A DNA stretch of 64,000 nt from Tribonema minus (Eukaryota; Sar; Xanthophyceae; Tribonematales; Tribonemataceae). The stretch's first letter is position 1; the number at the start of each line of letters is the position of its first letter. The stretch covers positions 1 through 64,000 of the forward strand of contig JAFCMP010000044.1 of the NCBI GenBank assembly GCA_017506865.1. The letters are read 5' to 3'. Of the stretch, positions 9,165 through 62,417 are shown in pieces. The position numbers and the translations under genes were made by a program. Under the pieces are notes generated by a model. The model made no database searches and was not told the origin of the DNA. It worked only from the letters and a program-made list of their open reading frames with translations.

Positions 9165-12100
9165 TTACCAGGCACTGTTGTCCTGCTGGTAATTCCCGCC
9201 GCCGCCACCGGCGCCGCCGCCGCCAGCAGCAAAACCCCCATACCCCGCCCCGTAACCCCCTGCCGCAACAGGGTATCCGCCGCCAGGCATCCCGCCGCCG
9301 CCGCCGCTGCGGCCGCCGCCACCTCTGCCGCCGCCATATCCGCCACCCATGCCGCCACCGCCGCCGCCGCCTTCCTTGCGGTAATCGCGCGCGCCAAACT
9401 TGCCGCGTCCGCGCCCGCCGCCGCGGCCGCCGCGGCCGCCGCCATATCTGTGTGACGCACGCAGCAGCGGCGGTGCGGGGGACGGGGGTTAGAGCCGTGA
9501 GAAGACGCATATGACGTGTCAGTTGAAGTTGGAGTATGGCATATAAAGGTGCGTCACACATGGTCGTGAGCGCTCAGAGGATGGGATGCTTGATCAGACG
9601 CCTCGCGACTGATGCAGCCAGGGTATGTGGCCGATGCGAGAGGAAGCACACAGATCCTAACCCTAACCCTTGTCACACTGGCTCTAACCCTAACCCTCAT
9701 TGCAGCGCCCACAACACCGCCTGCCTCTGCTGATCAGATCATCCCCCAAGCGGCATGGCACACTGTAGAGGAAACATTCGTGCAGGGACACTTCAACTGA
9801 TCCAAAGAACTTCCTCTAGAAACTTGAACTTACCCGCCGCCGTACGACGCCATGGACGACAGCCACGCCGGCACCACCTGGTCGTTCTCGGTGAGCAGGT
9901 CGTGGAGCTCGCGCGCAATGTTGCGGTTGCGCTCGTTCATGAAGCTGAGCGCGTGTCCAATGTTGCCCACGCGCCCCGTACGGCCAATGCGGTGGACGTA
10001 GTCGTCAATGTTGGTGGGCAGGTCGTAGTTCACGACCTGCAGCGGGGCGGGGGGCGGCGGTGCTCAGCTAGGGTTAGGGACAGTTGAAGTTGACACTGGT
10101 GCATTTGTGCAAATGCCGATTAAGCCAATGCGGTGGACGTAGTCATCGATGTTGGCGGGCAGGTCATAGTTCACAACCTGCGGCAAGGTGAGGGGCAGTA
10201 CATGTGTGCATCAGCGCTCGACAGCTTAGGTTTAAGACAGGGCCAATTAAAGTTGATTCAGCCAATGCGGTAAACCGTAGTCGTCGATGTTTGTGGGCAG
10301 GTTGTAGTTCACGACCTTGAGAGGCAGGGAGAGGGGGCAGCACGTACATGTGTGCGTCAGTGCTCGACTGCTTCCCTGTTGGGCATGTCAGTGATCAACG
10401 GATGTGAGCGCTTCAGCGATCACCGCTACCGCCACATGGGGGGGGGGGGGGGGGGGGGGTTAAGGGTGGTAGGAGACCTTGATGTCGCGCAGCAGTTTGC
10501 GATTCTCGGCGATGGGATGGCGGCAGCAGCGGCGCTCATCAGCCGAGTGAATGCATCAATGCTCAACCGGCGAGCTGACAAATGGATGCGTCAAAAGCGA
10601 TCATACAACAAGTGCGCACGCACAACAAATCGCACCTGCGTAACGTTGCTGATGTCGAGACCGCGCGCGGCGACGTCCGTGGCCACCAGGATGGGTGACT
10701 TGCCGCTCTTGAAGTGCTTGAGCGCCTCCTCGCGCTCGCGCTGGCTCTTGTCGCCGTGGATGGAGGCTGCCGGCAGGCTCTGCAATGTGCGGCGCGCGGA
10801 GATGAACTTCAAGATCAAGTTGAAGTCATGATGGAGAGTGCGAAGGGCACCAGCTCCAGCTGAAATGTGGCACGACAGACATACTTCCAAGCACTGAGGC
10901 ATTATGTTTGGCCATGCATACACAGCAAAAAGCATCATGGCAGGTGCGCTGGCTCTTGTCGCCGTGGATGGAGGCCGACGGCAGGCTCTGCGGCGCGCGG
11001 AACGCGGAGGCGTACTTCAAGATGAAGTATGAACGGAGTGACGCTGACGTTGTGCTGATGCACATTTGAGGACACCAGTCCAGCTGTGGTCGTGGCATGA
11101 CACACATGCTTCAAAGTATGTACTGGAGTGTTATGTTACTTGAGTGTTGTGTTACTTAAGTGTAATGTTAGGCCACGCAGCAAAAAGCATCATGGCAGGT
11201 CCGCATGGCGGCCCAGCAGAGGTGGGGGGCAGGGCTCAGCACAAGATCAACTGGAACTATGGTCACACGCACAACTATACCAGCAACCAGAACTCGCAGC
11301 ATGCATACGTACCCCCATCAGTAGGTAGGTTTGGTAGCAGTGATGCTCAGCCAAATCACACCTTGCGCTGGTAAGCAGTCATCGGTGTCTGGCACAGCTG
11401 CAGTAGAGGCTGGCTGGCAGGCAAGTTTGAGCATGCCTACGTACCCTCATCCTCACCTGGTGCATGCATGCAACCCTCATTAATGGGTAGGTGTGGTAGC
11501 AGCAACGCTCAGCATGCATACATACCCATACCCTCATCAGTTGGTAGGTATGTGCCCTCATATCGGTAGGTAGATATGGTAGTTGCGACACTCAGATATG
11601 CACATGTACCCTCATCCTCACCTGGTGCATGCATGCGTACCCTCATCACTAGGCACGTATGACAGCGATGCTAAACATGCATACTACCCTCACAGGTAGG
11701 GTAGGTATGGCAGCAGTGACACTCAGCATGCACACGTACCCTCATCCTCAGCTGGTGCTCGAGGTAGTCGGCGCCGCGCTTGGTCTCCGTGAAGACCAGA
11801 ACCAGCCCAGTGCCGTCCAGCTGCAGCGCGCGAGAGCAGCAGCGAGCAGCGTCAAATAAAGCTGTCGCAGTTTCTGTGTGGCACGTCACGTGAATGTGCT
11901 TTGTGGTGTCTGTGTCTTGTGCAGCCGCCGGCCGCTGCAAAAGCAAGCGCCTGTGCCATCTACCTCACAGGCACGACAAGGAGCAGTGTCGACTGAAACT
12001 GAGCAGTTTTCTTGTGTGATGCATGGAAGTTGTGATGTGTCTACCTCATATCCGTCTGCTCCTTAGGGGTTGTTGGTTCAAACGTGAGTGCAACTCCTGT

Positions 12101-60300: not shown

Positions 60301-62417
60301 TGGGATGACGCGCCCGAGACGATACCGGACCCTGGTGCGGAGAACTTCAAGCTGGAGACGTGGGATGATGTGAGAGGAAGCAGGGGCTGTGCGTACACAC
60401 GCATAACATACGTTTCTCCTTTCAGCGCACGTCATTCATCAAAGTTGTGCAAATCTTTCTCATATACGCTCTGCTGTAATGCCCCTCCCTCCCCCCCCCC
60501 CCCCCTCCCCAGGCCGAAGACGGCGAATGGGAGCCCGCGCAGATACCCAACCCCGATTACCAGGGCCCCTGGCGGGCCCCCATGATCGACAACCCGGACT
60601 ACAAGGGGGAGTGGGAGCAGCCGATGATTGACAACCCTGACTTCAAGGAGGACCCCCTGCTGTACCGGCGCTGCGACGGCTGCACGCACGTGGGCTTCGA
60701 GCTGTGGCAGGTGCGTGTCCCATTTGCGCCTGGCGGCAGTTACATCTGATCAGCAGCGACAATCATTAAGAAGGTGTAAGACGCAAGGCAAAGGCATTGC
60801 AGATGGACGAAAGTTTTCTGAGGCCGCACGACCCTGTCTGTGGTGTGAGGCATATCCCCCCTGCCCCCCCCCCCCCCCCCCCCCCCCGTTCACTTCAGAT
60901 TTTGCCTGAGAGCGATTGCATTGTGGGAGGGGGTCCCCCAGACTTTGTGACGCACTTCATCACAACCACTTACACCTGCATGCAACGCGCACGAAATCAT
61001 TCTGCAAGCAGCTGACAAGACCAAACATGACAGTCACAAAATAACCAACAGGCTTTGTTTGATATCTACTGCATCACTCACTTGAGAGCTGGAGCATCAC
61101 ACCATTCACAGTCCCCCGCACCGCCGCCAAAACCCATACATAGTTGGACAACTTCAGCTTTAACTCAAATCCGGCTTGAACTCCCACCACCTTGTTTGCG
61201 CAGGTCACGTCGGGCACCATCTTTGACGACATCATCGTCACAGACTCTCTGCCCGAGGCGTTCGCGCTCGCGGAGGAGGGCTGGGCCAGGTGGAAGGACA
61301 AGGAGAAGGCCATGTGGGAGGAGGTCTCCAAGAAGGTCAGCGCTCAGGATACTCATGAATTGAGCAGCGTATTCACACCAGAGTGATTCAAGGGGTTACT
61401 TTCCGAGGTAACAGCTGTCTTCAGAGAGGGTCAGCCCCGGCGACTGAGCACTGCAGCATGATTCAACATAAGTATGAGAAGTATGCAGAAGGTACTCAGG
61501 CAGAAGGCACTCAGGCTACTCATGAAGTCAGAATGGCGCACATCCGTCAGTCGGCAACACATTTATAAATGAGCATCTGCAGTAATTCACTCTTTGAAGC
61601 ATCAGCGGGTCTCCGAGGGATGTCACCGTCGAGCCCCGTCGGGCTGTCACCGCTTTCGCTAGTGAATGTTGAGTACGGGTAATGCAGCGCTCTCTCCATG
61701 CAGTGCACTGCTTGCAGACCCGTCGATATCGCTCTGCACTAACGAAAGAATCCTTTATTTGGGGCGATACTAACCCCAAACCTTACCCTTACCCTAGACC
61801 CAGTGCTCTCTCAATGCTGTACGTTGCCTCATCAGAATGCCGATATTTCAAACGTGATCAACAGCATCAGTGTTCCATTGTCCGTTCGTGCGTGCACCGC
61901 CCCTGTTCAGGCACTTGGTTGTCAGACGACGCAGGGGCTGCCCTGTGCCGATGAACCCTAGCCCTAGTGCTGCCCTGTGCACATACTATGCCACGTAGCT
62001 GACGTGCTTGCTCGCGCTAATGGTTGTCCGAATGCGCTCACCACGAGCACTGTTCGAATATCAAAGTCGGCATTTGTGCGCTGTGTACATAGTGGAAAGG
62101 TACACCGGCTTGCAAAGGTCTTCACTCGTTGGCATCATCAGAGGCGGTCACCCAATGATGCTTTGAAAGCGCAGCCGTCAACTGCAACAAGGCTGGTTCC
62201 ATACAGTGTGTCGATGCACCTGGCGCCCACATCGCATTGCAGCACAACACATATACGATATTACAGTATAATGCCAAAACAGAAGTATGACAACTGCTCC
62301 GTGGTGCTCTCGCAGGAAAAACCGGAGATGCCATCATTCGGCGACGAGGGGGATGACGATTTGGACGAAGATATGGCAGCTGCTATGGACGAGGACTGGA
62401 CCAAGGAGGAGCTATGA
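57346..62417 (+). CDS. CRT: Calreticulin, ER lectin chaperone with C-terminal KEEL
   Basis: Eight exons: 57346-57404, 57515-57680, 58465-58641, 59156-59305, 59780-60016, 60513-60710, 61204-61335, 62316-62417; 406 aa, all phases consistent. Signal peptide MVTRRLVLSAGVALATAQLS. The N-domain has KVFFREHFNDEGW, NKGIQTSQ, the conserved Cys pair (ALDCGG, GPDICGS) and THVYTLHVK. P-domain (exons 5-6): three A-type repeats (IPDPNVTKPEDW, IRDPAAVKPDGW, IPDADAEKPAEW) and three B-type repeats (GEWEPAQIPNPDYQ, APMIDNPDYKGEW, PMIDNPDF). The C-domain is short, acidic (GDEGDDDLDED) and ends KEEL, an ER-retrieval variant of KDEL. Length is usual for the family. It binds calcium and folds glycoproteins in the ER lumen. 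It diverges from the MFS gene. Confidence 0.94.
60098..60201 (+). repeat. Duplicated calreticulin P-domain exon segment, still open
   Basis: A copy of the last ~105 bases of exon 5 with TAG before it (possible acceptor) and GAT|GTGAGAG after it, as in the true exon. Read in phase 0 it has no stop and would add two A-type repeats (DAVKPNGWDDVP and EGEKPEEWDD). It could be a cryptic or alternative exon, or a recent relic. Confidence 0.7.
60286..60375 (+). repeat. Second, more decayed copy of the calreticulin P-domain exon end
   Basis: This repeats GGGATGACG-GCCC-AGACGATACCGGAC and ends TGGGATGAT|GTGAGAGG. The part further upstream, aligned to the exon, contains a TGA, so the full segment is not translatable, although a short stop-free piece after CAAG (about 60291) remains. 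Confidence 0.7.

What the first reader, a model, noticed from the sequence alone, without database searches (positions are those of the whole stretch)
9165..62417. Introns across four genes are filled with tandem, decaying copies of neighbouring exon ends plus their splice sites
By eye I count more than 35 relics in DED1, PPR, GDH and calreticulin introns. Each repeats the terminal 20-100 bases of an adjacent exon, the splice site and the start of the intron; similarity usually declines with distance. FdC2 lacks them. This points to a genome-wide process of tandem duplication across exon-intron borders that lengthens introns, multiplies decoy splice sites and could seed exon duplication. I know of introner elements and exon duplication, but not of this recurrent border-spanning pattern as a general intron-growth mode.
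Basis: partly seen in the sequence, partly recalled or inferred. Interest (0 to 1): 0.88.

Follow-up and report, generated by a model that had tools for sequence, protein, structure and literature searches.

The report
Introns growing by splice-junction tandem duplications
In this probable green alga, many introns hold decaying head-to-tail copies of the neighbouring exon end and its splice site, left by small tandem duplications that pile up at exon-intron junctions and seem to have lengthened the introns.

Summary
Copies are direct and local: exon ends match their own-side intron at 52 of 193 ends, non-adjacent introns of the same gene in 1 of 1,836 comparisons. The pattern recurs elsewhere in the genome: 26 of 120 sides of chaperonin and kinesin exons, against 1 of 120 with the flank reverse-complemented.

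Units (median 140 nt) hold a median 42 nt of exon and 93 nt of intron. Relic indels ignore the reading frame (65 of 69), so trapped copies decay largely freely. Border-spanning events exceed a simulated uniform duplication model about 5-fold, even with exons masked. A DED1 paralogue has relics at 7 of the 8 borders that have them in the window gene; relics match their own exon at 132 diagnostic sites, the other exon at 23, suggesting recurrence.

Small tandem duplication is known; its concentration at splice junctions as an intron-growth mode appears new. Why junctions are favoured is unresolved; no RNA data were available.

The parts
9165..19814 (-). DED1/DDX3-like DEAD-box helicase gene, 12 modelled coding exons (19814-19403, 19063-18857, 18024-17883, 16925-16665, 16109-15965, 14463-14372, 13875-13718, 12931-12781, 11820-11740, 10779-10636, 10036-9834, 9447-9165); upstream start exon not resolved
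   Evidence: Spliced frame open and donors/acceptors canonical; coordinates as; exons 4 and 11 match PF00270 and PF00271
12237..12707 (-). Array of relics of the 3' end of DED1 exon 8 plus its donor (copies 12602-12707, 12501-12597, 12237-12299)
   Evidence: 86%, 85% and 75% identical to 12749-12854 and sub-stretches
15161..15436 (-). Two relics (15358-15436, 15161-15239) of the 3' end of DED1 exon 5 plus donor
   Evidence: 83-84% identical to the exon 5 border region 15945-16019
16467..16584 (-). Relic of the 3' end of DED1 exon 4 plus donor
   Evidence: 77% over 125 columns to 16598-16722
17073..17125 (-). Relic of acceptor plus 5' end of DED1 exon 4
   Evidence: 89% over 53 nt to 16897-16949
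13994..14077 (-). Relic of acceptor plus 5' end of DED1 exon 7
   Evidence: 89% over 84 nt to 13808-13891
13492..13538 (-). Relic of the 3' end of DED1 exon 7
   Evidence: 83% over 47 columns to 13728-13772
10124..10334 (-). Two relics of acceptor plus 5' end of DED1 exon 11
   Evidence: copies of 9983-10055 at offsets 141 and about 278
10946..11028 (-). Relic of acceptor plus 5' end of DED1 exon 10
   Evidence: 86% over 83 nt to 10738-10820
18102..18171 (-). Relic of acceptor plus 5' end of DED1 exon 3
   Evidence: 81% to 18012-18082
33299..52164 (+). Glutamate dehydrogenase gene, 24 modelled exons
   Evidence: Ab initio model; joined exon translation matches PF00208, E 9.8e-12; two exons alone gave no Pfam hit
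36478..36929 (+). Relic array of the 3' end of GDH exon 4 (36159-36415) plus donor
   Evidence: copies at offsets 109, 252 and 408, 81-86%
37618..38108 (+). Relic array of the 3' end of GDH exon 5 (37440-37564) plus donor
   Evidence: copies at offsets 121, 228, 318, 411 and 536, 73-95%
38386..38489 (+). Relic of acceptor plus 5' end of GDH exon 6 (38599-38793)
   Evidence: 92% over 74 nt
46177..46584 (+). Relics of acceptor plus 5' end of GDH exon 17 (46701-46862)
   Evidence: 96% over 50 nt at offset 164; further copies at offsets 305 and 473
47571..47874 (+). Relics of acceptor plus 5' end of GDH exon 19
   Evidence: offsets 115, 225 and 335, 68-84%
49709..49913 (+). Relics of the 3' end of GDH exon 21 plus donor
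   Evidence: offsets 127 and 268, 80-88%
50586..50809 (+). Relics of acceptor plus 5' end of GDH exon 23
   Evidence: offsets 113 and 228, 74-84%
51261..51318 (+). Relic of the 3' end of GDH exon 23 plus donor
   Evidence: 93% over 59 columns to 51094-51152
57377..62417 (+). Calreticulin gene, 8 modelled exons
   Evidence: Ab initio model; two exons match PF00262 (the second is 0.2 bit under the cut-off)
60098..60393 (+). Relics of the 3' end of calreticulin exon 5 plus following intron
   Evidence: 74-78% at offsets 181 and 347
58172..58229 (+). Weak relic of the 5' end of calreticulin exon 3
   Evidence: 69% over 58 nt

Best explanation
Small head-to-tail tandem duplications (mostly 80-210 bp) recur in this genome and fall on splice junctions more often than a uniform process would put them there. 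When a unit holds an exon end, its splice site and the start of the intron (or the mirror image at an acceptor), the exon-proximal copy stays in use and the other copy ends up inside the intron. Exon and reading frame are unchanged and the intron grows by one unit. The trapped copy then decays, largely free of coding constraint, and can be amplified into arrays. Shown here: direct, local, mostly head-to-tail structure; frame-free decay; border excess over a simulated uniform model; and different relics in a paralogue. Inferred: which copy the spliceosome uses, that the duplications arise by break repair with fill-in and end joining, and that a splicing filter shapes which units survive. Unresolved: why junctions are favoured.
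For: (1) Locality and orientation. Window self-BLAST (bits >=34): 98 direct repeats at under 500 bp offset against 3 inverted. Exon ends match own-side introns at 52 of 193 ends, the intron on the exon's other side at 18 of 193, non-adjacent introns of the same gene in 1 of 1,836.
(2) Tandem structure. For the nearest relic, the intron part of the unit is also homologous at p<0.05 in 23 of 30 borders and p<0.01 in 16 of 30. Best-local-segment identity in those 16 is 0.81 (covering 58% of the stretch on average) against 0.89 for exon parts, i.e. nearly twice the divergence, as expected if both intron copies decay and one exon copy does not.
(3) Decay. 65 of 69 relic indels are not multiples of three; relic-exon identity is 0.907/0.912/0.840 by codon position.
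(4) Border excess. Components: border 66, intron-only 30. With exons masked: 42 to 29, ratio 1.45 (chaperonins alone 24 to 18). Uniform simulation gives 0.30 and 0.19 for two age ranges, largest of 16 replicates 0.40; unmasked simulation 0.33-0.44.
(5) Beyond the window. 26 of 120 sides of HMM-anchored exons; border 36 and intron-only 20 in nine chaperonin genes.
(6) Recurrence. DED1 paralogue: of 20 borders, relics at 7 shared, 1 window-only, 2 paralogue-only, 10 neither (Fisher p 0.0045); at sites where the paralogous exons differ, relics match own exon 132 times, the other 23, neither 11.
Against: Gene models are mine (ab initio, no RNA), so some 'intron-only' repeats could belong to missed exons and some borders could be wrong. 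Seven of 30 borders show no homology of the intron part at p<0.05: decay, or not simple tandem units. Breakpoints are not random: intron part under 42 nt 0 seen against 16 (10-23) expected, exon part over 80 nt 2 against 21 (14-28); plain random duplication does not predict this. Signs that are not purely neutral: codons changed non-synonymously 322 against 421 (384-453) expected, synonymously 207 against 134 (114-155), stops 7 against 13.6 (7-21); relic-relic identity is also lowest at codon position 3 (0.861/0.876/0.819). I ascribe this to synonymous change in the parent exon, but without an outgroup I could not separate that from weak coding constraint. Gene conversion between exon and relic could also make relics match their own exon; diagnostic sites repeat within arrays, and relics were found by alignment to their own exon, which favours 'own'. 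PPR, FdC2, the transporter-like gene and chaperonins L065 and L067 show no border components or relics above controls (L065 has one relic alignment). Simulated unit sizes were mostly taken from observed border units. Of six young near-complete tandem pairs, three join within 1 nt and three come from one locus, so the break-repair origin is weakly supported.
Confidence: 0.85

Rival explanations
1. Ordinary, uniformly distributed small tandem duplication. Border-spanning copies only look special because the exon copy is conserved and keeps old events recognisable.
For: Intron-only duplicates exist too (29 masked components). Border units (median 140) are about as long as size-biased sampling of intron-only units predicts (124, range 107-146).
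Against: Simulations with exon conservation and decay give border to intron-only 0.33-0.44 unmasked and 0.19-0.30 masked, against 66:30 and 42:29 observed. Breakpoints depart from uniform.
Confidence: 0.15
2. Selection keeps border-spanning copies: extra splice sites, longer introns or a spacing need make them useful, so they accumulate above the neutral rate.
For: The border excess; intron parts are never shorter than 42 nt at donors or 65 nt at acceptors among 63 borders, as if branch point and tract must be carried along; shared borders in paralogues; fewer non-synonymous changes in relics than unconstrained substitution predicts (322 against 421).
Against: Indels in relics ignore the frame, 65 of 69. 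GT/AG retention, 81 of 95, is near my rough estimate for free decay at this identity (about 0.8).
Confidence: 0.1
3. Relics were inherited from before the paralogue split and kept similar to their own exon by gene conversion.
For: At the exon 7 acceptor both genes have relics with almost the same exon part and offset (68 at 186; 67 at 195) yet match their own exons 17 to 4 at diagnostic sites.
Against: At four of the seven shared borders (exon 4 acceptor, exon 5 donor, exon 8 donor, exon 11 acceptor) exon parts and spacing differ clearly, and three borders have relics in one paralogue only.
Confidence: 0.15
4. Introner-like or other mobile elements carrying exon fragments.
For: Multiple copies per intron.
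Against: Relics match the adjacent exon (non-adjacent introns 1 of 1,836) in direct orientation; a genome search with one DED1 array, which skips very common words, found only itself and the paralogous exon.
Confidence: 0.02
5. Assembly artefact.
For: Local tandem copies are a classic assembly error.
Against: Copies differ, mostly by several to 30%, with their own substitutions and indels, and the pattern recurs on several contigs and in a paralogue.
Confidence: 0.02

Closest known systems
[quoted passage not shown] Hellsten et al. 2011; potato RdRp, Ma et al. 2016, PMC4974935: abstract and passages read, the earlier two as cited there)
   Same: A tandem duplication that may cross an exon-intron border; splice signals are copied with it; the protein can stay unchanged.
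   Different: There a new intron is created, in single cases. Here no intron gain was seen: an existing intron grows, at a large share of the junctions examined, with decaying multi-copy arrays.
Novel Drosophila intron positions by tandem duplication of proto-splice sites (PMC2891723, abstract and passages read)
   Same: Tandem duplication of coding DNA near splice sites, one copy becoming intronic.
   Different: Exon-internal AG/GY units giving new introns; not border-spanning growth of old introns.
Small tandem duplications from fill-in at break ends plus end joining (Schimmel et al. 2021, PMC8355091, abstract and outline read; similar plant work recalled, from no call)
   Same: Small head-to-tail duplications; a likely molecular source.
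   Different: The abstract does not tie them to splice junctions.
Introners (PMC9860276, start of abstract and one passage seen)
   Same: Reshape introns genome-wide, including in green algae.
   Different: Mobile, shared sequence families inserted at new sites; the relics here are gene-specific and local.
Tandem exon duplication and exon remnants in introns (recalled, no call)
   Same: Exon-derived sequence in introns.
   Different: Whole exons with both splice sites; here partial exon ends with one splice site.

Membership tests
Small tandem duplication | Head-to-tail adjacent direct copies | tested here: met
   98 direct against 3 inverted at under 500 bp; intron part of the unit homologous at p<0.05 in 23 of 30
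Small tandem duplication | Blunt or near-blunt joints, little microhomology | tested here: inconclusive
   Six young pairs; aligned length minus offset 1, 0, 1, 5, 7, -24
Intron gain by tandem duplication (Rogers model) | Duplication creates a new intron between AG and GT of two exon copies | tested here: not met
   Exons 2-12 line up one to one between DED1 and its paralogue and the relics lie inside these existing introns; not examined for other genes
Introner | Near-identical elements in introns of unrelated genes | tested here: not met
   One array searched against the genome finds only itself and the paralogous exon; other-gene introns 0 in five draws; non-adjacent introns 1 of 1,836
Tandem exon duplication | Whole exon with both splice sites copied | tested here: inconclusive
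   Longest exon part in the pairs listed is 135 of 225 nt; units that hold a whole exon were not searched for systematically
Alternative or cryptic exon | Relic splice sites used in mRNA | not testable with these tools
   No RNA data; 81 of 95 keep the dinucleotide

The most novel reading that the evidence does not exclude
Splice junctions are themselves mutational targets in this lineage. A process tied to the exon-intron boundary (chromatin, composition step, transcription or splicing intermediates) repeatedly makes tandem duplications with one end about 10-75 nt inside the exon and the other about 50-170 nt inside the intron, hits the same junctions again in paralogues, and is a main source of intron length.
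Probability: 0.3. Interest if true: 0.88.

Novelty: new variant of a known kind. Interest (0 to 1): 0.72.

Why it matters
How introns lengthen without transposons is an open question. Here the trapped exon pieces act as a sequence-specific record of intron growth, because each can be compared with a conserved parent exon. It gives a direct count of growth events, a source of decoy splice sites, and a system to test how the spliceosome chooses between two near-identical sites about 140 nt apart. It also warns annotators: my own gene finder called several relics as exons (for example 12693-12634 and 37730-37792).

Tried and rejected
Introner or transposon origin: rejected by locality and by a genome search with one array. 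Assembly artefact: rejected by divergence and recurrence. Uniform duplication plus detection bias: simulated, does not fit. Full coding constraint on relics: rejected by frame-breaking indels, though weak constraint is not excluded. A first exon-masked classification gave border 9 and other 20 in the window, and 8 and 34 in the chaperonins. By inspection it had counted relic-relic pairs as 'other', and I replaced it by labelling from the unmasked run. The other-gene control was contaminated by overlapping loci and paralogous exons and is not used. Interstitial telomere-like repeats are not significantly tied to border duplicates (10 of 51 introns with, 4 of 46 without; p 0.16). Two algal genome papers (PMC11228838, PMC10400597; passages) showed nothing on this pattern in the passages returned. 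Ten literature searches brought up no title or abstract describing border-spanning tandem duplication as a general mode of intron growth; the library lacks most subscription papers.

Rows dropped: the transporter-like gene; one of ten chaperonin genes (C516) was not fetched; exons of L072 beyond 6212 were left out; the 30 kinesin loci were used only. Chaperonins were chosen after one search had already shown overlapping hits in three genes; nine of the ten were then used. The simulations left out FdC2 (one intron, no repeat), as did.
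Full report
Setting. The window is contig C44:1-64000 of a 158,181,000-base, 554-contig genome. The DED1 coding sequence has GC3 0.88 and GT-AG introns, and the genome gives 132 kinesin-domain matches. I take it for a chlorophyte alga, which is inference. Genome size and the AACCCT-type repeat resemble Haematococcus lacustris as described in PMC7617258 (passages read), but no test of identity was possible.

Gene models. DED1 (minus strand, 19814-9165) was modelled by hand from the sequence: 12 exons, open frame, canonical splice sites. 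GDH, calreticulin, PPR, FdC2 and a transporter-like gene come from a small hidden Markov gene finder trained on DED1, from whose output I picked the exons. Pfam supports DED1 (PF00270, PF00271), calreticulin (PF00262), PPR (PF13041) and, barely, the ferredoxin-like gene (PF00111, 21.1 bits against a cut-off of 21); the transporter-like exon gave only matches under their cut-offs. GDH gave no hit with two single exons but matched PF00208 with a joined translation.

The observation. Exon ends match their own flanking introns better than all 40 controls at 33 of 95 borders: DED1 10 of 22, GDH 20 of 44, calreticulin 3 of 13, PPR 0 of 8, FdC2 0 of 2, transporter-like 0 of 6. The reverse complement of the own intron does so at 3 of 95, never by more than 5 points. 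A self-comparison of the window gives 98 direct repeats at offsets under 500 bp against 3 inverted ones. Of 106 direct pairs within 2 kb, 44 span an exon border on one side, 11 more pair exon with intron, 41 are intron-intron, 8 lie outside modelled genes and 2 are exon-exon.

Extent. Around Pfam-anchored exons (the 30 best of 56 chaperonin and the 30 best of 132 kinesin matches), 26 of 120 sides score at least 25 against their own 1.5 kb flank (chaperonin 18 of 60, kinesin 8 of 60). The same flank reverse-complemented does so at 1 of 120, and the best of ten shuffles at 1 of 120. In nine chaperonin genes border components number 8 in L070, 7 in L068 and in L072, 6 in L063 and in L069, 1 in L064 and in L071, and 0 in L065 and L067. 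Over 194 borders of 14 genes, 57 carry at least one relic at score 18 or more, up to eight at one border (no control was run at that cut-off). At score 22 exon ends match their own-side intron at 52 of 193, the intron on the other side of the exon at 18 of 193, and non-adjacent introns of the same gene in 1 of 1,836. The 18 may reflect short exons, whose two ends overlap; I did not test that.

Anatomy. Of 64 borders with a border-spanning pair, 33 are donors and 31 acceptors; for the 63 with offset under 260 the unit is a median 140 nt, made of a median 42 nt of exon and 93 nt of intron. Of 49 relic alignments, 42 come within 2 nt of the border. Of 95 border-reaching relics, 81 keep the splice dinucleotide: donors 48 of 59, acceptors 33 of 36. 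The intron stretch between exon and nearest relic is itself homologous to the stretch beyond the relic border in 23 of 30 cases at p<0.05 and 16 of 30 at p<0.01. Exon-part identity averages 0.89; the best local segment of the intron part in the 16 cases averages 0.81 and covers 58% of the stretch. A nearly doubled divergence where both copies are free, against one where a copy is held by coding constraint, is what tandem duplication plus free decay predicts.

Decay. Relics do not stay in frame: 65 of 69 gaps are not multiples of three. Against purely free decay stand fewer non-synonymous codon changes than expected (322 against 421, range 384-453), more synonymous ones (207 against 134, range 114-155) and somewhat few stops (7 in 1,823 codons against 13.6, range 7-21); relic-relic identity is also lowest at third positions (0.861/0.876/0.819). 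Synonymous change in the parent exon after duplication would produce this, and the finding that two relics agree against the exon mostly at third positions (46 columns, against 8 and 11) points that way, but an outgroup is needed. At 26 borders with several relics, the nearest is more similar than the farthest 20 times.

Is the border special? I simulated uniform tandem duplication on the same gene layouts, with exons conserved and introns decaying, and ran the same detection; unit sizes were drawn mostly from observed border units. Expected border to intron-only ratios were 0.44 and 0.41 and 0.42, 0.39 and 0.33, single replicates 0.24-0.58. Observed: 38 to 20 in window genes plus three chaperonins, 36 to 20 in all nine chaperonins (the three shared), 66 to 30 in everything with a shorter offset limit. 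To remove the advantage of conserved exons I masked all exons and detected intron-intron similarity only: 42 border-linked against 29 intron-only components, ratio 1.45 (window 18 to 11, chaperonins 24 to 18), while simulation gives 0.30 and 0.19, largest of 16 replicates 0.40. An earlier masked classification that mis-assigned relic-relic pairs gave 9 to 20 and 8 to 34 and is superseded. Intron-only arrays also lie close to borders: 27% within 30 nt against 11% expected (0-23%). Breakpoints are not uniform either: intron part under 42 nt in 0 cases against 16 (10-23), exon part over 80 nt in 2 against 21 (14-28). The smallest intron part is 42 nt at donors and 65 nt at acceptors, as if the branch point and tract had to be copied along; this is inference.

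Recurrence. A search with one DED1 array found a paralogous exon on C224. The fetched gene has matching exons 2-12, and exons 4-11 are 88.5% identical over 1,232 nt. Of 20 borders, 7 carry relics in both genes, 1 in the window gene only, 2 in the paralogue only and 10 in neither (Fisher p 0.0045). At sites where the two exons differ, relics match their own exon 132 times, the other 23 times and neither 11 times; sites recur within arrays and relics were found by alignment to their own exon, so these counts overstate the evidence somewhat. Shared borders often have different units, such as the exon 8 donor (offset 147 with 74 exon columns against offset 108 with 44). The simplest reading is repeated birth at the same junctions after the genes separated. 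Gene conversion remains possible for some, notably the exon 7 acceptor, whose relics look alike in the two genes.

Effect on introns. Of 72,810 intron nt, 27.5% lie in recognisable duplicate copies. Introns with border-linked duplicates have median length 777 (51 introns) against 518.5 (46 introns), p 0.0035.

Mechanism. Shown: small, mostly head-to-tail duplications across splice junctions, one copy lying in the intron and decaying. Inferred: break repair with fill-in and end joining, as known for small tandem duplications elsewhere (PMC8355091, abstract read). The local support is thin: three of six young pairs join within 1 nt. Introns also carry interstitial TTAGGG-type clusters (23 in 14 of 97 introns, none in 19,653 nt of exons, none in 21,882 nt outside modelled genes), which may be another trace of break repair, but they are not significantly tied to border duplicates. 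Not known: why junctions are hit.

Novelty. Tandem duplication that creates introns (PMC4974935, PMC2891723) and mobile introners (PMC9860276) are the closest described cases I found. In the parts I saw, none describes growth of existing introns by border-spanning duplication at a large share of junctions. Ten literature searches brought up no such report in an open-access library that misses most subscription papers. I rate it a new variant of a known kind.

Limits. No RNA data, no related genome, ab initio gene models with some exons probably missed (long introns in L063, L067, L068 and L072), and a sample of 14 genes for the detailed tests, five of them from a window picked because of this pattern.

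Noticed in passing
window introns, e.g. 14831-14866, 45232-45261, 46044-46092: Interstitial telomere-like TTAGGG arrays lie in introns: 23 clusters in 14 of 97 introns of 14 genes, none in 19.7 kb of exons and none in 21.9 kb of the window outside modelled genes.
   Followed up: partly
window 4395-6522: A 1,064-bp tandem duplication, 99.4% identical, with an inner 330-bp repeat; a 26-mer recurs exactly at 4251, 4282 and 6579, perhaps the end of a mobile element.
   Followed up: no
   Followed up: no
L075 (G000:C224:84500-94400): A DED1 paralogue with matching exons 2-12 but introns of very different length, e.g. 957 vs 473 and 599 vs 1036 nt.
   Followed up: yes
window 22860-23036: A young 88-bp tandem duplication, 96.6% identical, upstream of the FdC2-like exons.
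   Followed up: no
window 12693-12634, 37730-37792; L063 4133-4253: The ab initio gene finder calls relics as exons, so automatic annotations of such genomes may hold false exons.
   Followed up: no
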